NCBI GenBank assembly: GCA_002189035.1 | Contig: NEEC01000050.1 | Coordinates: 1-59,519, forward strand | Direction: 5' to 3' | DNA from: Utricularia gibba | Lineage: Eukaryota; Streptophyta; Magnoliopsida; Lamiales; Lentibulariaceae | DNA length: 59,519 bases | Made by a program: the position numbers and the translations under genes | The notes under the pieces: generated by a model | What the model saw: the letters and a program-made list of their open reading frames with translations, nothing else | What the model was told of the DNA's origin: nothing | Databases searched by the model: none | Part shown: positions 19,926-45,392 of the stretch, piece after piece | Layout of the letters: each line of letters begins with the position of its first letter | Numbering within the stretch: position 1 is the first letter of the stretch

Positions 19926-22349
19926 CTAAAAATCAAACTCCAACCGAAACAGCAAAGACCACACCCCAGAAAACACCATCCACAATGCAAGAACCTCAAG
20001 AACACCACATAAACATGCACCCTTCCTGCAATGGCAGATTCAGAAGAAATCGGGTGGATGAGTGCGACATCAAAAAAGTAAGAAAAACAAAGAAAGAAGC
20101 TTCCTTCCGTGAAAAACCCCAAGTTCTTGTTCTTCACCTCGCCCTTCTAAGTTTGTCTGGCTTCCCCACTTATCCTCCTGCTAGACTTCTTCATTATCTC
20201 CTCGCAGGCCCACACGCATCTCTCTACCGTGCTCCCACGCGATTCTCTCCATTTTTTTTCGAACACTCGCTCCCCCAGGCTCACCGGATCTTTTCTTGCT
20301 CCACAGTACTGGGCTTTCAAATCCAATCCGCAACGTTCTGGAATTCAAACTTCATTTTTCAAGAAAAAGGGTCGTGGGGTGCACGCGTGGAAGAGGGGCG
20401 TTGCCCCAGGGAGATGGTTGCTTTTCGACTGTAGTTTTCTACAGAGACCAACGCTGCATCGGAGCCCTGAACTGGCAGGAAGAATCGAACCCCCGGGCTC
20501 CCGAAACTACCCCTCGGTCTCTCCGCAACACACTGCGCATCGCCTCAGGGGTATTCTGATAATTACACACTGCTGTCCTGGTGCTTCTCCGATTCTGACG
20601 GCAAGAAAGCGAAAGGGAAGGCCTTGGTTTTGGTTTTCGTTATTTAAAAATATCAAGGGAATTATTTAACTATATTATTTATTTGAATTAAGTAACAAAT
20701 ATTTGTATTAATATTGGGTGGTTTTTTAATGCGTCAAATTAGAAACAATACAATTGATTTTTTATTTTAGGGAAAATTCAAATAATGATTTTTTATTTTC
20801 CAAATGATTACTTATTTCAACGTCTCTTTCGGTCGCTCGAGCACCAGAGTAAAAGCTCCAGAAAAGGCAATAAAAGGAGTGCTGGGGCCGGGAGGGTGGG
20901 GGGACTCTTTGGTCAATTCGGAGGGACGTGCACATCGCTTTAAACATTTTCAGGGGCATAAATGTAATTGTACATAAAATAATAAATTCTTTTTTATTAT
21001 TATTGTCTTTTATAAAGATGCAAAAAAATAAAATCTGTTTATTCTTTTATATTATCTCAATAAAAAGAAACAAAAACTCAAATTTTTGAAATAAAAAATT
21101 GACATGTCCATTTCAATGCCCAATGTTTTAAGATTTGAGATTAGATCTAGTTCGTTTTAAATCAAAAACTTTTTAAAATTCGTTTCAATAATTTTTAGAT
21201 TATTAATGTAATGACTTATACCCACCTTGCACGATATTACATAATTTTACATTTTTTTTCATTTTTGTTCTGCATTCCCATAAGATCATATATCCTTGGA
21301 TTATTCTAGATCAAACATATTTAATTTTAGAATTACTATAAAAATACTCCATCATATTTAAGAAAAGACTTCGTACAAGATTTAAATAGTCATTTTAATC
21401 AATCTCATCTTATTCTTCATCAATAACCGATGGGTCGGGCCATGGTAAAATTAGTCTCAGATTCGATTTTTCAATATTTTAATCAAGGTAAAATGATACA
21501 TTGTTTGTATTGACTTGATCCGCTATGAATGCTAGCAATGTTACACTTGATGCCTTTTCTAAACGCATGATGCTATCGCTTGGCTAAGTTAACTAGTTAT
21601 TTTGCTGCAAATAATATGAAACGAATATGTAACAAAAACAAAGTGTTGGAATGCAAACTAGTAAGCGGTAGGCAAGAATAAATTAGTTACTAGTTCATTG
21701 TACTTTGATGCTTAAACAACTAGTCTATGCTATATAACCTAACTTCAATTCAATGCAACATTATTATAATAAAAATGAAAGGATTCTTCCTCCTTTCCAA
21801 TTCTCATCCCAAAGTCATAGTTACCCTATGGTAATATTTGATTTATGGTAGTGATAGGGGTTTAAAGGTAAAATTCCAAATTGTACCATGTTTACTTCAT
21901 GTGTTTAAATTAAACTTGAATTATGAGGTTTTTTTTTTTAAAAAAAAATCTTTATACAATAGTTTATGTAAAACTACACTTTACTTTATTTTATTTAATA
22001 TTATTTATACTAATATTAACTAAATACAATCTAAAAAACTAATTCTTATACATCATATTTACTTAAATTCAAATAAATTAAACTTATTTTTTCCTGCTTC
22101 ATCAACCAAGCATTCAATGAAGTGAAATGTATTTAAAATCATTACATGGATTGACGTGCATGGGCTAACCCATTTCTGGGCTTGGCCCAAAAGGAACAGC
22201 CCAATCTCCTCAACTTTTTACTCCCCGCAATCCTTATGCAATTTGAGAGACAAAACAAACGTCTGATTAGGGACGATATGGGAAGTTGACAAGGTAGTTG
22301 ACTAAGAAGAAACCCTAACCACATTAGCAACAACACGAGTCGAAATTTT
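19926..22349. other. Intergenic region: SCL6 leader/promoter and AT-rich spacer
   Basis: Bases 19926-20640 are relatively GC-rich and probably contain the SCL6 leader and promoter. Bases 20640-22140 are very AT-rich, with no gene, tandem repeat or terminal repeats visible. Confidence 0.45.
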
Positions 22350-24251
22350 CTACGGTGATATTCCGATGTTGGTTTCGGGGGCGAGGATACCTCCTTTCGC
22401 CATCGCATCATCTCCATCCTGCACAGCATTTGCACGTCGGATAATTCGGATACCGATCGATCGGAAGTCGCATTGTTACGAGATGTATAGGTACCTGTTG
22501 GCAGACATCCGGCTTCTTCACTGGCGGATCGGGCGTGCCACCGAACTGAATGTGAGGGAAATGAGCCCACTGCAGCAACAATGGAGAAGAACACGAATAT
22601 TCCAAACTAATCATGGTTAGAACAGATGAGCACGGGAAAGGGCGAATCAGGGTTAGGAGAAAACGAAAAGGAAGCCCTAGGGTTTAGTAGGGCGACTGTT
22701 GTTGTTAAATGGAGTGGTGGCGTACGTTTTTGGCAGCGGCGCTGAAAGCTTCTCTGTGACTGATATCTGGGTTTCCAGCTTTGATTCGTTGAATCTCCTC
22801 TCTGCAAAAAGTCGAAAAAGGGTTCTTTTGTCAACAGACGCCTTTAGGGTTCACCTGTCTGAAACCTTTCTCTCCCAACACTCGGGCTTTCATTGCATCA
22901 AGGAGCCTGAAAAGACGCTCCTAAGGCTGCCATTCCACACCCCAGGACACTTGGTGGGATTTAGCATTCTACTGTTTTTTCTGAATCCATTCGATTTCTT
23001 TAGCATAAATGATACTAAATTATTATTGGAGAATTATTCTAAAAACTTGAAATTAGGGTTTTGGAATTTCATACCACTTAAGTGTGCTCCTATCATGAAC
23101 ATTCATTCATTTAGAATTCAGAAAATCGTTACAAAACTGGGTTAGAGTGAAGCTTACTTGATGAAGCGATTGTAAGCAGAAGGCACTCTTTGTCGTTTCT
23201 CCAGAGCTGAAACAGAAAAAAAAAAAATGGGACAAGTGAAGAAATTATGAAGAGCAATAAATTCACTGTCTTTTTTCACTTTTTTTATTGTTTCACTGTT
23301 TACTGTCATTACCATCTTCCCATCATTTCTCCATCATTATTTTATGATTCCACCTTCATAAAATAACCCTAGTGAGAAAAACAGCAAATATAGGGGTTTT
23401 TTTTTTCTGTAAGGGCTGTCATGACACGCTGAAGTGTTGATGAACAATCTGGGTATCAGAAGAATAGGATTGAAACTCCCATTTCTGAGGATGGGGCAAA
23501 ACTGCTGATGAGTAAAAAAGAGCAGTTTTTATCTTCTTGTCTGGGAACCAATTAACTGCTTTGATAAAGGGAAGTGTCTTGATGGTGAAAGAACCATCAG
23601 ATAGCACATGCCAATGAGGTAGATATCACAGCGGTAAGTGTGCGTTTAGCTTAAAGTTTAGCCATGGCTGGAGAACGGAAAAGAAGCTTACGTCTGTGAA
23701 CCAAGGGTGGCTTGGGAAGCTGGTCGTTGATTCCCCGGAACGGTGTCGGCGTGTGGGTGGGGATCTGCTGATGGATACCCTGCTGGTTCACCGGTGCAGT
23801 GAGAAAATCCCCCTGTAATGGAGTTGTTTTAATAAAAAAAGAAAGTGAAGGTTTCTCTGGGCTCTGAAAACCCTAGTTCTACCGGAATGTTGTGAGGAGT
23901 GAGGAAGGAGTTCCCAAACTGGAGCTGATTGTTAGGAGTAGCAGGAAGAAGAACTCCCCGCATGTTCAAAGAGAATAGGTTGCTGCAATGGCCGCAACGA
24001 ACCGCCGCCGTCTTCAACAAGCTCACACAAGGAACACTCACCTATGAAGTAAATCAATTAACTGACCTGGGAATATCTCGTAAGCCATCAAGAGACAGGA
24101 AAAATTTATCACTCTTCTACTCAGAATCTTAAGGTGGGAGTTTACACTTTACCGCGAGGACGGTTTGGCAGAGAGTGCACTTGACGTAGCAGAGCTTCTC
24201 TTGGAGATGGGTAGGGAGCTGTTCGGGTTGAAAACAAGAAGAAGTGGACAT
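22350..24251 (-). CDS. YAB1: YABBY transcription factor, FIL/YAB1-YAB3 type
   Basis: Seven exons in phase: 24251-24153, 24041-23883, 23812-23692, 23206-23158, 22801-22726, 22569-22495, 22418-22350; 215 aa. The N-terminal C2C2 zinc finger ([12 protein letters not shown] ... [16 protein letters not shown]) is followed by a variable linker and the HMG-like YABBY domain ([51 protein letters not shown]). LLPA after NMRG, the [10 protein letters not shown] tail and the Gly/Pro-rich end place it with FILAMENTOUS FLOWER/YAB1-YAB3 and not with YAB2, YAB5, CRC or INO. These factors set abaxial fate in leaves and floral organs. All exons are intact. Confidence 0.93.
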
Positions 24252-39204: not shown

Positions 39205-39209
39205 AAAGG
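39205..39209. repeat. Target site duplication, left copy (AAAGG)
   Basis: Identical to 45388-45392 at the far side of the copia element. In gene orientation it is CCTTT, inside the SPF codons of the MLF-like exon. Confidence 0.93.
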
Positions 39210-39655
39210 TAAAAGTATTTTTGGCTGCTTGATTTTGTTGGAGACTTGGTTGAACGTTGAGAGAATGTTGAAGTTTGTGGATATTGACTATTGTTTTTGG
39301 ATCGAAAAGAACTTTCCTTTATTTTCATAAAGCAAACAGGGATTTATATAGATGAGGAGAGTTGCCCGTTGGATCATATCAGGCCTAAAATATGACCGTT
39401 GCCTTTAGTCTGTAGATTAGTCCTCTTGTTCATCTACTGTGTAGCAGCCAGAATTTACTAGGACTTCTTTCATGGACTGGGCTTCAGATGCTTCTTCTTG
39501 GGCCAGTAGTTTGGAATGTTGAGGCCCAAGTATGATAAGGCCTTTTTCCCAATCTAATTGAGGGTTGCTTCTCATGGGAGGAACAGAGGTCGCGCGCCAT
39601 TCATCTTCGCGGGTTGAGACTTCCCGGATCTTCGTTGCTCCACCACTTGCTGACA
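39210..39655 (-). repeat. 3' LTR of the copia element
   Basis: 446 bp, starting TGTCAGCAAGTGG and ending ACTTTTA in element orientation. It contains a TATA-like tatataaatc (39341-39350, minus). The pol frame runs through the boundary and stops inside it at 39417. A polypurine tract (AGGGAGGAA) adjoins it at 39656-39664. Confidence 0.93.
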
Positions 39656-41612
39656 TTCCTCCCTGAGGGAGTAATGAAGATCCGGCTGTTGTCACAAGAG
39701 GATTTCTCCGAATTCCCAGCATTTCTCTGATTCTGTTGAAATTCCTTGGGAATAAGCATTTGGTGAGAATATCTGCAGGTTGCTCATCCGATGGTAAGTA
39801 CTCAAGTTTAATCAGTCCTTCCTTCACATAATCTCTGAGTATATGGTATTTAAGCTTGATGTGCTTGGTCCGACCGAACATCACAGGATTTTTTGCGATG
39901 CTAATGGCAGATTTGTTATCTATCTTGAGTATTATCGGTCTTGTAATTTGAATTTTCAGGTCATCGCATAATTTCACCAACCATTGCGCATGGTTGGCAG
40001 CAGCAGCTCCTGCGATGTATTCGGCTTCTGCCGATGATTGTGCAGTGACGGCTTGTTTCTTGCTGTTCCATGAAAATACCGCTGATCCTAAGTTGAATAG
40101 ATAGCCTGTGGTAGATTTACAATCTTGTTCGTCGCCAGCAAAGTCTGAATCAACAAATCCCTGCAAAATAGGGTTAGTACCTTTCTTGTAATATAAACCA
40201 AAGGAAGTTGTGGCCTTCAAATATTTCAGGATACGTGTTGCTATTTCCAGGTGTGTGTTGTGTGGCTGATGCATGAATCTGGCCAGAAATGATACGGCGA
40301 AGGTTATATCCGGTCTAGTAGCAGTTAAATACATCAGAGCGCCAATGAGTTTCTGGTAGTTATGAGAGTCAACTGGATGAGAATTAAGGTCAGATAATTT
40401 CTTTCTAACTTCTGGTGAGAAAGGAGTAGTAGATACTTTTGATGATTCCATGCTGTATTTTTTGAGTAGTTCCTCTGTATATCTACGTTGGTTCAAAAAT
40501 ATGAAGTCTTTATGTTGAATGATCTCCATTCCTAGGAAATAACGTGCATGTCCCAGATTGGTGAGTTCAAATCTTTGCTGCAATAGCTTCTGTAATTCAG
40601 AAATTCGTTCTTCACTGCTGCCTGTGATTAGAATGTCGTCTACGTATAAGGAGACAATAACTTTTCCTTGGATATCCTCAGATATGTATAATGTAGTATC
40701 ATTTTGACTTCTTGTATATCCCAGCTCTAGAAAGAAAGTGTCAATGGTAGTATACCATTCTTTGGGGGCCTGCTTGAGTCCGTATAAAGCTTTATTTAAT
40801 TTCAGTACATATTCTGGATTATCTCGGATGATGAAACCTGGAGGGGGTTCACATATATGTCTTCGCTTAACTCTCCATGCAGAAAGGCCGTTTTTATGTC
40901 CAGATGATGTAAATACCACTTGTTGCAGGCCGCAAGTGCAATAATCAGCTTAATGGTGTCTAATCTTGCCATCGGAGCGAAGGTTTCCAGGTAATCAATC
41001 CCTTCTTTCTGTAAATATCCCTTTACCACCAGTCTGGATTTTCTTTTGTTCAGAGTGCCATCAGGATTTAACTTGGGACGGAATATGAATTTTAGGTCCA
41101 GAGGTTTTTTCTGCTTCGGCTTAGGCACTGCTGTCCAAACGCCGTGTTTCTGGATGGAGTTGAATTCTTCGTCTATGGATTTCTTCCAATCTGGGTCAGC
41201 GAGAGCTTCCTGAACGCTTGCTGGTTCATAGGTGCTCAATGCCCTATCATAGATATCGTTGATTGGTGCATATCCTCGCACAGGTGAGCTGTCTTCATTT
41301 TGTTTCAGATCCATACATAGATGATGTGGGGTGTAAGGAACCCCTTCTTGTCCGTAATCTTCCAGGTAACTTTGCCTTTGAGGTGAGGGAATGAGTATAG
41401 GATTTCTTGCTGCTAGGTTGGGTCCTCGGTTTTGAGTTTCTTCATCTTCTCCTGATGAGTTTTCTTCTTCTGATGTATCGGTTGATGATAGCTCAGTGAT
41501 TTCCTTTGGATTTCTGATGCTGTTGATGAGGGTTTCATGACATTCTAGAGTTTGTTCAGGTATGTGCTCTGAGTCTGCATCCTCATATCTCATGTCTTCG
41601 ATAGTAGTGGCC
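39417..41612 (-). CDS. Copia reverse transcriptase/RNase H part (frameshifted)
   Basis: Picks up just after the foreign segment with TTIEDMRYEDADSEH, a typical acidic integrase-RT linker. RT blocks follow: HGVWTAVPKP, KSRLVVKGYLQKEGIDYLET, FAPMARLDTIKLIIALAA, DIKTAFLHGELSEDIYV. There the frame shifts at a C-run (ggggg 40843-40847, + strand), continuing PPPGFIIRDN, LNKALYGLKQAPKEW and the catalytic SLYVDDILITG. RNase H follows (GFVDSDFAGDEQDCKSTTGY, AQSSAEAEYIA). The stop at 39417 lies in the 3' LTR. One base appears missing at the shift. Confidence 0.9.
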
Positions 41613-42545
41613 ATGCAACACGGTGCTTCAGTTTTAAAGCCTTGTATCTAATTCTCAATATCTATGCATATGTCTTTCAACACTGAACTTCTCGAAAGTA
41701 AAATCTCATTCAGATTTTATCTTAAGACTCGCGGGCCAGGAGTAATTCAGTTGATGAGGTCCTCCTCTTCAGGATTGTTGGGAGGAGCCTGTGGCATCGA
41801 AACCAGGAGGTATGAACACTACATCATCCCACATCGACACCGAACCATCCTTCATTCCTTGGATCATGTTCTCGAGTACATCAACCTGAATGTCTCCTTT
41901 TCTCAGTGCAGGATATGATTGTCTCTGATCACCAGCAGCTCTTAACAGAGACTTCTCTAGATCCTCCTTGCGGAAGAACACGGGCCTGTATCGCTTATCC
42001 TGAGTCCGTAATATTAACCTCTGTGACTGGAAAACCGGAACCCCACAGAAAGTGTCATCTGGAATTCCATCTTCTTGGCGTACCTTTAAGGCGTTCCTAA
42101 TCTGTGAAGCTTCGGGTAGCAACCTTAGAGCAACTCCATCAACCTTAAGCTGAAATACCTTGCATAAATCAACTGGAACAACTTGTGAGTCCAAACTCAT
42201 GGATGGATTAGAAGCCTTCATCTGATTGAGAAGTATCTCAGCATCCGCTTCACTGAAGCAAAACAATCCCAAACTTTTCCCTGTACTCTTCCCGAAACTA
42301 AAACAAATTCTCGCGCGGCATTGCTGAGAGCGAAAACCGGAATTCCGGAAAGCCTCTTCTCTATATCTTCTGCAGCCATGGTGCGTTTCTTTGTATTGAA
42401 AAAAGCATTTTCACTGGGCACAGCGTTAAGGACTTTGTTATCCTAGTACTACTCTCGCCCAAGCACGCTTAACTTCGGAGTTCTGATGGGATCCGGTGCA
42501 TTAGTGCTGGTATGATCGCACCCCTGGGAAGTCCTCGTGTTGCAT
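41613..42545 (-). other. Foreign segment in copia pol: 5S rRNA fragment plus intronless TIC22 copy
   Basis: This 933-bp segment lies exactly where pol similarity stops and resumes. It is bounded by the inverted 10-mer ATGCAACACG (41613-41622) / CGTGTTGCAT (42536-42545), which matches the 3' terminus of plant 5S rRNA. In element orientation the order is short antisense 5S 3' end, sense 5S 5' two-thirds, TIC22-III-like coding sequence with stop, then about 150 bp of 3'-UTR-like sequence. No target duplication was found at its borders. Confidence 0.8.
41769..42421 (-). pseudogene. TIC22: Intronless TIC22-III-like gene copy captured in the retrotransposon
   Basis: TIC22 is an intermembrane-space component of chloroplast protein import. 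The copy reads EKRLSGIPVFALSN, REFVLVSGRVQGK, then in the next frame SLGLFCFSEADAEILLNQM, VPVDLCKVFQLKVDGVALRL, GVPVFQSQRLILRTQ, RPVFFRKEDLEKSLLRA, GDIQVDVLENMIQGMKDG and WDDVVFIPPGFDATG with a stop at 41769. It matches the TIC22-III subtype better than TIC22-IV. No introns interrupt about 200 codons, and the transit peptide is missing. One base seems lost at the ccc at 42279-42281 (+ strand). An intronless, 5'-truncated copy fits capture of a processed transcript. Confidence 0.85.
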
Positions 42546-42546
42546 C
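42440..42546 (-). pseudogene. Rearranged 5S rRNA gene fragment
   Basis: On the minus strand 42523-42440 reads GGGTGCGATCATACCAGCAC, then the canonical plant 5S path through the CCGGATCCCATCAGAACTCC region and GTTAAGCGTGCTTGGGCGAG up to GTAGTACTAGGAT, where it breaks off. That is about the first 84 nt, including the A-box region but only part of the C-box. Next to it, on the + strand at 42522-42546, lies the 5S 3' end (ctgggaagtcctcgtgttgc). The two parts point in opposite directions, so this is an inverted rearrangement and not a working 5S gene. Confidence 0.9.
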
Positions 42547-42547
42547 A

Positions 42548-44876
42548 TGTCCTTGTTGAGGGAATAAATTCCATATATTTTCTGAATAAGAATGATTTTT
42601 GTCATGTGTTGTCGAGGAACTCCAGTTGTAAATTCTAGTCTCGTCTACTGTTACATCACGACTGAGTTCCACCTCATTTGTTCTTAGATTCAGTACCCTG
42701 TAGGCTTTACTTGTATTGCTATATCCCAGGAAAATTCCTTCATCAGATCTTTTGTCCCATTTTGATCTCTTCTCCTTTGGAATGTATATATAGCAGGGTG
42801 ATCCAAATACCTTCATGTGATCTAGGCTTGGAATTTTGTTGTACCATAGCTCATAAGGAGTTTTACAGTCTTTATTTCCTTTGGTTGGCAGGCGGTTCAA
42901 CAGATACACGGCTGTGTTGACTGCTTCGCCCCAGAATTCTAGAGGTAAGTGTTTTTGATAGAGTAGACACCGAGCCATATTGACTATTGTCCTGTTCTTT
43001 CGTTCACATATGCCGTTCTGCTCTGGCGTATATGGCGTTGTAAACTGGTGAGTAATACCATTTGTCTCACAAATGTGTCTCAGTTCAGTTGATTTGTACT
43101 CACCTCCGTTGTCTGACCGGAGTGTTAGAATCTTACTATTGCTTTGAGTTTCTGCAAGGACCTTGAAGACTTGGAAGTGGTGCAAAACCTCTGATTTATG
43201 CTTCAGGAGATAGATCCAGGTATACTTTGAATATTCGTCAATAAAGATCACGTAATATTTGTTGCCGGCTCGAGTAGGAGAGGCCATGGGCCCACAGACG
43301 TCACTGGTAACAACTTCCAATTTTTTCTGAGAATGAATGCTGGACTTAGGGAGTGGTGTTCGGCTCATCTTCCCTTGAAAGCATATTCTGCAGTGTTTTT
43401 CCTCAGGAATTATATTAGGAATCCCCTCTGCCAGGTTTCTCTTCTTCATGGATATAAGGGAGGCATAGTGATGGTGACCTAACCGTTGGTGCCAAATCTC
43501 AGATGATTCTAGGGACTTGAGGCAAATGTTGTAATCGATGGATGTAGCATTCGGAAGCAGTGGAAAGACCCTATCAGTCATAGCAACCGTAAGGAGTATA
43601 TTATCTTCTTCATCTAATATTTTGCACTCATTACTTTCCAGATGAACTTTCATCCCCTTTTCAACCAGCTGGCCAGTGCTTAGTAGATTGTGGTAGGCCT
43701 GGGGCACCAGATACACGTCTGTGATCTTGATTAATTTCTGGACAGTTTCAAGGCAAACTGTTCCTTGACCGATGACCTGTAAGTGATTTCCATCAGCAAT
43801 TTCGATTACTTTCCCAGTTAGCTCGATGAAGGTTGTGAATAGACTCTTGTCGTTGGTTATATGATGACTGCATCCGCTATCGATAAACCAGATGTCTTGT
43901 TTCCTTAGATCCACAAATGATGTGATTAGAGTTTTGCGGCGCAGAGAGTAAATATCAATCTTCTTCTTATTCATTTCAGCTGCGAGATTTACATCATTCA
44001 TAGCGCTAGTAAGTTTGTCCTTAGGATCTGCAGCCTTTCCTCCAATCTGATGGTATTTTTTCAGGGGACACACTTTGTCCACATGACCTTGGAGAGAACA
44101 GTACAGGCATTTGGCGTCAGGGCTCCAGAAACATTGTGTTGGTGAATGGCCTTTTCGCTTGCAGAATGGGCATGAATCTCCAGTACTTGGTTTCTCAATT
44201 TTTGCTTGAAAGATCACCGGTTCATTTGATGATTGAGAACCATAGCCTTTCTGATTTTCTGTTGCCTTGAAGGCAAGTTCCTGGCCTTCACCAAGTCCGA
44301 CTTCAACTTCGGATTCACTGAGTCTTTCTAGTAGTTTTCTGGAGGATATGGAGTGAATGCCTGTGACCCGCAAAGTAGTGACTACAGGGGCAAAGGACCG
44401 CGGTAGGGAACTGAGTATTTTTGATTTAATTCTTCTGTCTTCCAAGGGCTCTCCAAGGTCTGTAACTCAGTGACAATTTTGATTAGCGTTTCTGAAAAAT
44501 GAGAGATACTCATACCTGGTAAGAATTTCAGGTTGTCAAAGAGCTCCCATTGACGTTGAATGCGGCTCTCACGGGCTTCCGTATCCTCTCCGTAGAATTC
44601 CTCCAATTTTTTCCAGATGTCTTTGGGACTTTTCAGTAGCATAACACGGTTGAACACTTCTTCAGATAAGGCTTGATCCAGAGCATACTTAGCTTTCTTT
44701 ACTTGAGCATCTGTGAGTTTGAGACTTTCTGCTGTGGCTATTTCAGAGGAGTCTGGACGTACAGGATCCACCACAGACCATAAGTCGTTCATTTGCAGGT
44801 AACTTTCCATTCGTACTGCCCAAGAAGCGTAGCGCTGACCAGTGAAGATTGGAGGAGCTTGTTGGAGGGCTGCCAT
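42548..44876 (-). CDS. Copia gag-protease-integrase part (frameshifted)
   Basis: The gag frame starts MAALQQAPPIFTGQRYASW at 44876. About 145 codons on, near 44453, similarity moves to another frame (PLEDRRIKSKILSSLPRSF), consistent with one G missing from a GGG run. The second frame then holds two CCHC zinc knuckles (CPFCKRKGHSPTQCF and CLYCSLQGHVDKVC), the aspartic protease site WFIDSGCSHHI, the integrase HHCC region (HQRLGHHHYASL, CRICFQGK) and the DDE core (DVCGPMASPTRAG, LRSDNGGEYKS, TPEQNGICERKNRTI). It runs to FPQQGHDAT, where the foreign segment begins. Confidence 0.9.
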
Positions 44877-44924
44877 TCTGAGAGACTGCAATGATAAGAG
44901 GAGATGGGAGTCGGTGAAGTATCT

Positions 44925-44941
44925 TCACGTCGGGTTCACCA
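44925..44941 (-). other. Primer-binding site of the copia element
   Basis: In element orientation TGGTGAACCCGACGTGA lies directly after the 5' LTR. It ends like the complement of a tRNA CCA tail. It differs from the initiator-Met site (TGGTATCAGAGC) used by most plant copia elements; I could not assign the tRNA. Confidence 0.75.
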
Positions 44942-45387
44942 TAAAAGTATTTTTGGCTGCTTGATTTTGTTGGAGACTTGGTTGAACGTTGAGAGAATGT
45001 TGAAGTTTGTGGATATTGACTATTGTTTTTGGATCGAAAAGAACTTTCCTTTATTTTCATAAAGCAAACAGGGATTTATATAGATGAGGAGAGTTGCCCG
45101 TTGGATCATATCAGGCCTAAAATATGACCGTTGCCTTTAGTCTGTAGATTAGTCCTCTTGTTCATCTACTGTGTAGCAGCCAGAATTTACTAGGACTTCT
45201 TTCATGGACTGGGCTTCAGATGCTTCTTCTTGGGCCAGTAGTTTGGAATGTTGAGGCCCAAGTATGATAAGGCCTTTTTCCCAATCTAATTGAGGGTTGC
45301 TTCTCATGGGAGGAACAGAGGTCGCGCGCCATTCATCTTCGCGGGTTGAGACTTCCCGGATCTTCGTTGCTCCACCACTTGCTGACA
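44942..45387 (-). repeat. 5' LTR of the copia element (promoter LTR)
   Basis: 446 bp, no difference from 39210-39655 found by eye. A TATA-like element at about 45073-45083 (minus) would drive element transcription. It is immediately followed by the primer-binding site. Confidence 0.93.
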
Positions 45388-45392
45388 AAAGG
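45388..45392. repeat. Target site duplication, right copy (AAAGG)
   Basis: Matches 39205-39209. Removing one copy plus the element restores the MLF-like reading frame across the junction. Confidence 0.93.

What the first reader, a model, noticed from the sequence alone, without database searches (positions are those of the whole stretch)
41613..42545. 5S rRNA-TIC22 chimera captured inside a copia retrotransposon, bounded by a 5S-derived inverted repeat
Seen: pol similarity stops after FPQQGHDAT and resumes at TTIEDMRYED. Between them lie a 5S rRNA fragment (42440-42523), an opposed 5S 3' end (42522-42546) and an intronless 5'-truncated TIC22-III copy with stop and 3'-UTR-like tail, enclosed by ATGCAACACG / CGTGTTGCAT. 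Known: retroelements can capture host transcripts, reverse transcriptases make chimeric retrocopies joined to small RNAs, and Cassandra elements carry 5S sequence in their LTRs. Inferred: template switching among element RNA, 5S rRNA and TIC22 mRNA built the insert, with 5S end complementarity serving as the jump point. A 5S-headed gene capture in the middle of pol is something I have not seen described.
Basis: partly seen in the sequence, partly recalled or inferred. Interest (0 to 1): 0.85.

Follow-up and report, generated by a model that had tools for sequence, protein, structure and literature searches.

The report
Retrotransposon that swallowed two host RNAs
A very young plant copia retrotransposon carries, in place of a piece of its own pol gene, a DNA copy of a spliced chloroplast-import mRNA joined to two opposed pieces of 5S ribosomal RNA, a nearly fresh record of a copying enzyme jumping between RNAs.

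Summary
In contig C422 a young copia element (identical 446-bp LTRs, 5-bp target duplication) has 313 nt of pol replaced by 924 nt. The insert is a spliced, 5'-truncated Tic22 mRNA copy (all six parent introns gone, one substitution in 832 nt), then 5S nt 1-84, then an opposed 5S 3' end reaching nt 117. Eleven other copies, 99-100% alike, lack it. The four joints share 4, 5, 3-4 and 9 nt. An apparently allelic contig, C414, has the empty site. The missing 5S bases span the loop D tip. Best reading: reverse-transcriptase template switching, probably in the copia particle before integration, with the opposed 5S piece made by a second DNA end copying 5S, like LINE twin priming. Repair of a break in an integrated element is the main rival and is not excluded. 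LTR elements that capture host mRNA, and LINE chimeras with 5S, are known; an LTR-element chimera using both halves of 5S was not in my search listings. The 10-nt inverted repeat is only half 5S-derived: its other arm is Tic22 3' UTR with one changed base.

The parts
39205..39209 (.). left target site duplication AAAGG
   Evidence: empty site in C414
39210..39655 (-). 3' LTR of the copia element
   Evidence: 446 nt, identical to the other LTR
39417..41614 (-). 3' part of pol (reverse transcriptase; RVT_2 split over two overlapping reading frames)
41610..41613 (.). joint 1: GCCA shared by pol and Tic22 3' UTR
41616..41616 (.). only substitution between copy and parent Tic22 transcript; completes the 10-nt inverted repeat
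41610..42444 (-). 5'-truncated, intronless Tic22 retrocopy with stop codon and 3' UTR, no poly(A)
   Evidence: PF04278
42440..42444 (.). joint 2: ATCCT shared by Tic22 mRNA and 5S nt 80-84
42440..42523 (-). 5S rRNA nt 1-84, exact match to many genomic 5S repeats, ending at 5S nt 1
42520..42523 (.). joint 3: ACCC (four-C 5S variant) or CCC (five-C variant) shared by the 5S 5' end and opposed 5S
42520..42546 (+). opposed 5S 3' part, from about nt 90-92 to nt 117
42538..42546 (.). joint 4: TGTTGCATC, the only 9-mer shared by 5S sense and the element's internal + strand
42547..44445 (-). 5' part of pol (gag-pre-integrase, integrase core, SH3-like); its frame stops inside the 5S part, at 42469
44382..44891 (-). 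gag (Retrotran_gag_2)
44942..45387 (-). 5' LTR of the copia element
45388..45392 (.). right target site duplication AAAGG

Best explanation
A reverse-transcription accident in a copia particle. Shown: the finished structure and its four homology joints. Inferred: the order of events. First-strand cDNA, made in the window's + direction, left pol RNA at GCCA and continued on a co-packaged spliced Tic22 mRNA. It switched at ATCCT onto 5S rRNA at nt 84 and ran to 5S nt 1. The other arm, a DNA 3' end of element sense ending GATGCAACA, paired with the 5S 3' end over 9 nt and copied it to about nt 90-95. The two 3' ends then joined over CCC or ACCC. The product kept both LTRs and integrated with a 5-bp duplication, losing 313 nt of pol. 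It is probably a dead-end copy: the upstream pol frame stops inside the 5S part.
For: Six introns precisely absent and one substitution in 832 nt. 11 near-identical copies without the insert, and 313 nt replaced. Shared bases at all four joints, with joint 4 using the only 9-mer common to 5S sense and the element's internal + strand. No poly(A) and no duplication at the insert edges. 5S copied up to nt 1 with no 5S upstream spacer (exact to within the 3-4 shared bases), which points to mature RNA rather than rDNA. Identical LTRs, 5-bp duplication and empty site. An LTR variant present in both LTRs of this copy and in none of 10 other copies compared, as expected if both LTRs came from one cDNA. 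A second copy of 12 (C451) is also grossly rearranged inside intact LTRs and a 5-bp duplication, which suggests aberrant cDNA in this family. Review passages: particles may package mRNA by chance and microsimilarity lets RT switch (PMC5408686); 5S is listed among RNAs packaged by a retrovirus, MLV (PMC4997597).
Against: The opposed 5S piece cannot come from simple minus-strand switching on sense RNAs; it needs a second DNA end or an antisense 5S template. Joint 3 is short (P 0.053 or 0.026). The finished structure is equally what break repair in an integrated element would leave. No reads, particles or second chimeric copy were available.
Confidence: 0.62

Rival explanations
1. The element integrated intact, then a double-strand break in pol lost 313 nt. 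One break end was extended by a reverse transcriptase over Tic22 mRNA and 5S, the other over the 5S 3' end, and the two were joined by microhomology (filler-DNA repair).
For: Explains the opposed 5S piece and the deletion most simply; shared bases at all four joints.
Against: It must have hit one of 12 copies after an integration that is itself absent from the matching contig C414 (2 substitutions in 10,767 aligned flank positions). It needs a second, independent RT event. Two of 12 young copies being rearranged inside intact LTRs suits faulty cDNA better. None of this is decisive.
Confidence: 0.25
2. A LINE made a 5S-Tic22 chimera and inserted it into the copia element by target-primed reverse transcription.
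For: LINE chimeras with 5S are known, and the opposed-piece logic of twin priming is a LINE feature (passages of PMC13174262, and PMC2837659).
Against: No poly(A), no target duplication at the insert edges, and a 313-nt deletion instead.
Confidence: 0.05
3. Assembly or library chimera on a small contig.
For: C422 is only 59.5 kb and duplicates part of C414; reads could not be examined.
Against: Clean empty site with a 5-bp overlap, a variant shared by both LTRs and absent from 10 other copies, retrocopy bases that differ from the parent in the assembly, shared bases at four joints.
Confidence: 0.05
4. The element captured an older 5S-Tic22 retrocopy that already stood in the genome.
For: Tripartite RNA chimeras exist in LINE systems (PMC2104539).
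Against: No such locus found in G000, although G000 may be incomplete and the search scores only its best candidates.
Confidence: 0.03

Closest known systems
LTR-mediated retroposition / gene capture by LTR retrotransposons (maize Bs1; LTR-mediated retrocopies)
   Same: Host mRNA piece inside LTRs, joined through short shared sequence (PMC5408686 passages; PMC13317346 passages)
   Different: Here a non-coding RNA, 5S, is captured too, in two opposed pieces, and pol is replaced at a defined 313-nt gap
5S/LINE-1 chimeric insertions
   Same: 5S begins at nt 1 and is truncated; the passages report recurrent truncation at positions 46 and 90 (loops C and D), and give twin priming as a possible cause of antisense pieces (PMC13174262)
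   Different: LTR element, no sign of target-primed insertion; parts of both 5S halves are present and an mRNA copy adjoins 5S
Tripartite chimeric retroelement of Magnaporthe grisea
   Same: Double template jump joining three RNAs (PMC2104539)
   Different: LINE, 14-bp duplications round the chimera; the paper's text does not name 5S rRNA
Cassandra LTR elements with 5S-like LTR sequence
   Same: Plant LTR element with 5S sequence (listing; one passage in PMC12786077)
   Different: Here 5S is internal and exact; Rfam finds none in the LTRs
Abnormal template switching in plant LTR elements (Veju, BARE-2, Triticeae complexes)
   Same: RT switching between co-packaged RNAs before integration (passages)
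   Different: There the partners named are retrotransposons or an unknown sequence; here two identified host RNAs

Membership tests
Ty1/copia LTR retrotransposon | LTR pair and short target site duplication | tested here: met
   446-nt identical LTRs, AAAGG; empty site
Ty1/copia LTR retrotransposon | gag, then integrase before reverse transcriptase (RVT_2) | tested here: met
LTR-mediated retrocopy | spliced host transcript between the LTRs | tested here: met
   six GT-AG introns absent
LTR-mediated retrocopy | microsimilarity at switch points, no poly(A) | tested here: met
   joint 1 is 4 nt, P 0.018
LTR-mediated retrocopy | made in the particle before integration | not testable with these tools
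   one genome, no cDNA or population data
LINE chimeric retrogene | poly(A) and target duplication flanking the chimera | tested here: not met
   neither; 313-nt deletion
Twin priming (as mechanism) | two opposed cDNA pieces of one RNA with an internal gap | tested here: met
   5S nt 1-84 and about 90-117, opposed, with the loop D tip between; that both came from one 5S molecule is not testable here
Twin priming (as mechanism) | priming from both sides of a LINE-nicked target | tested here: not met
   no LINE-type duplication or tail at the insert edges
Cassandra | 5S sequence in the LTRs | tested here: not met
   the only 5S hit at Rfam's gathering score in the window is at 42415-42523
5S-derived SINE | many dispersed copies | tested here: not met
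   no second copy of the 5S-Tic22 joint found

The most novel reading that the evidence does not exclude
One 5S rRNA molecule, opened at loop D, acted as a splint in a copia particle. Its 5' part was copied by one cDNA end and its 3' part by the opposite end, so a structured Pol III RNA bridged and rescued a broken LTR-retrotransposon cDNA, an LTR-element counterpart of twin priming. The 5 to 10 nt absent from the two arms span the loop D tip, near the position-90 breakpoint recurrent in human 5S/LINE-1 chimeras.
Probability: 0.2. Interest if true: 0.65.

Novelty: new variant of a known kind. Interest (0 to 1): 0.5.

Why it matters
Here the donor RNAs' genes, uninterrupted sister copies and an empty site all lie in one genome at near-zero divergence, so each jump can be placed to a few bases. 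It shows 5S rRNA as a jump target in an LTR element, not only in LINEs, and gives a testable idea: small structured RNAs can bridge broken cDNA ends.

Tried and rejected
Rejected: simple insertion (313 nt of pol are missing); poly(A)-type LINE retrocopy; Cassandra origin; 5S copied from rDNA with its spacer (the spacer upstream of 5S nt 1 is absent); self-primed fold-back of the same cDNA as sole source of the opposed piece (the cDNA holds no antisense nt 85-119 to copy; reasoning). A brief stop on the 5S 3' end at joint 1 would explain the substitution at 41616, but then the parent's GCCATG match would be chance; left open, as is correction of an imperfect inverted repeat.

Led nowhere: 32 nt of the filler in the rearranged C451 copy match only themselves at up to 2 mismatches. 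The 76% 5S match at C3:4744630 lies in a decayed tandem array, and the 5S at C255:12.6 kb has array-like flanks. Folding 5S alone gave a minimum energy no better than shuffles (z -0.88, 39 of 200 shuffles at least as good), so the loop D placement rests on the Rfam alignment. The name loop D is from PMC13174262 passages and recall. The timing argument cannot separate particle from break repair. Literature: the listings (0 papers; 20 of 26 shown) and 52 named no LTR-element 5S-mRNA chimera; I judged by titles, abstract starts and the passages cited. The library is open-access only, and Tan et al. 2016 and Jin and Bennetzen 1994 were not held.

Full report
What is there. The window is contig C422 (59,519 bp) of an unnamed 100-Mb genome, G000; a Tic22 gene and 5S arrays of about 545 nt per unit fit a plant. 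From assembly size I guess Utricularia gibba; that is recalled and untested (PMC10663240 passages give about 82-100 Mb). A copia element lies on the minus strand at 39210-45387: LTRs of 446 nt, identical, and target duplication AAAGG. Gag, integrase and RVT_2 domains are in copia order.

The replacement. Eleven other copies match both flanks at 99-100%; further matches are 65-76%. In an uninterrupted copy 313 nt lie between the points that are adjacent to the insert here; C422 has 924 nt instead. Uninterrupted spacing was read directly in ten loci covering six distinct copies, all the same. For the other five the match coordinates leave 313 nt (four copies) or 312 nt (C321). No second copy of the insert was found.

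The Tic22 part. It matches C3:2693020-2694861 in seven blocks. The six gaps are introns with GT-AG ends, all precisely absent. Copy and parent differ by one substitution (41616) and two single-base indels in 832 nt. The parent in the assembly lacks one base that the copy has and that keeps the reading frame, so that indel is probably an assembly error in the parent; the other leaves the copy's own frame shifted and may be real or an error. The copy starts at about codon 54 of the parent frame, keeps the stop and nearly 160 nt of 3' UTR, and has no poly(A). Pfam gives Tic22, PF04278.

The 5S parts. 42440-42523 is 5S nt 1-84, exact. 42520-42546 is the 5S 3' part in the opposite direction, ending at nt 117. 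Of 13 5S genes read in one array, 8 share the commonest sequence, with five C at nt 91-95; 3 have four C; one has five C and lacks a G just before; one has six C. Some of these may be assembly errors. Joint 3 is thus 3 or 4 nt long. Between the two arms at least nt 85-89, and at most nt 85-94, are missing. In the Rfam alignment nt 85-92 form a two-pair hairpin with loop nt 87-90, loop D.

The joints. GCCA (4), ATCCT (5), CCC or ACCC (3-4), TGTTGCATC (9). Random breakpoints in the same sequences reach these lengths with P 0.018, 0.0054, 0.053 or 0.026, and 0 of 200,000. TGTTGCATC is the only 9-mer shared by 5S sense and the element's internal + strand, and the joint used it; two other 9-mers are shared in the opposite orientation and were not used.

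The inverted repeat. The right arm is 5S. The left arm is ATGAAACACG in the parent 3' UTR, changed to ATGCAACACG at the one substituted base, three bases beyond the joint-1 homology. Whether that base is an RT error at the switch, a short 5S patch or an inverted-repeat correction is unresolved.

Age. C414 carries the empty site: its flanks overlap by the 5 bp of the duplication. Over 10,767 aligned flank positions the two contigs differ by 2 substitutions and 5 gap positions, so I take C422 for an alternative haplotype of C414; the sequenced plant or pool could also be mixed. At a recalled plant rate of 7e-9 per site per year (my arithmetic) this is on the order of ten thousand years, a rough upper bound for the insertion. 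The four copies on small contigs (C422, C486, C236, C343) each have an empty site with a 5-bp overlap on a larger contig; the other eight copies were not tested. Exact 5-bp duplications were read at 11 of 12 copies; the twelfth (C413) is off by one base. Five of ten LTR pairs compared are identical and the other five differ by one base in length, not resolved further. The family is young and probably active.

Mechanism. The Tic22 piece must come from spliced RNA. 5S nt 1 at the joint, without the genomic spacer, suggests mature 5S RNA. A minus-strand jump series pol, Tic22, 5S explains all but the opposed 5S end. That end is explained if a DNA 3' end from the other side, GATGCAACA, was primed on the 5S 3' end and the two cDNA ends joined. 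In a particle this is an LTR-element analogue of twin priming; at a chromosomal break it is filler repair. I favour the particle because the element is absent from the matching haplotype, because a second of the 12 copies is rearranged inside intact LTRs and target duplication, and because an LTR variant not seen in 10 other copies sits in both LTRs. None of these is decisive; the LTR variant speaks to one round of reverse transcription, not to the insert itself.

Known ground. [quoted passage not shown] PMC2104539 as abstract and passages; Cassandra papers only as listing with abstract starts. The listings named no LTR element with a 5S-mRNA chimera. Each ingredient is known; the combination and the opposed 5S halves make it a new variant of a known kind.

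Noticed in passing
G000 C451:6682346-6688233 (L022, L038, L039): Another copy of the same copia family has its interior inverted relative to its LTRs, with a 285-nt duplication and about 38 nt of unmatched filler, inside a 5-bp duplication GATGA.
   Followed up: partly
G000 C3 about 2693894 (parent Tic22, exon 3 of the copied part): The assembled parent gene lacks one base that the retrocopy has; the parent frame breaks there, probably an assembly indel.
   Followed up: partly
C414:3438580-3439255 and 3441965-3442651 (L048, L049); window 22867-22879 and 20169-20178: Two copies of a roughly 680-nt element with terminal inverted repeats, 97.7% alike and in opposite orientation, are in C414 and absent from C422, with 10-13 nt repeats at the sites; Mutator-like by recall, not tested.
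   Followed up: partly
C3:4744000-4745400 (L041): Decayed tandem array of about 531-nt units with 5S-like sequence, apart from the main arrays; below Rfam's gathering score.
   Followed up: partly
C486, C236, C343 and C422: Four small contigs with young copies duplicate parts of larger contigs that have empty sites; the copia family looks currently active.
   Followed up: yes
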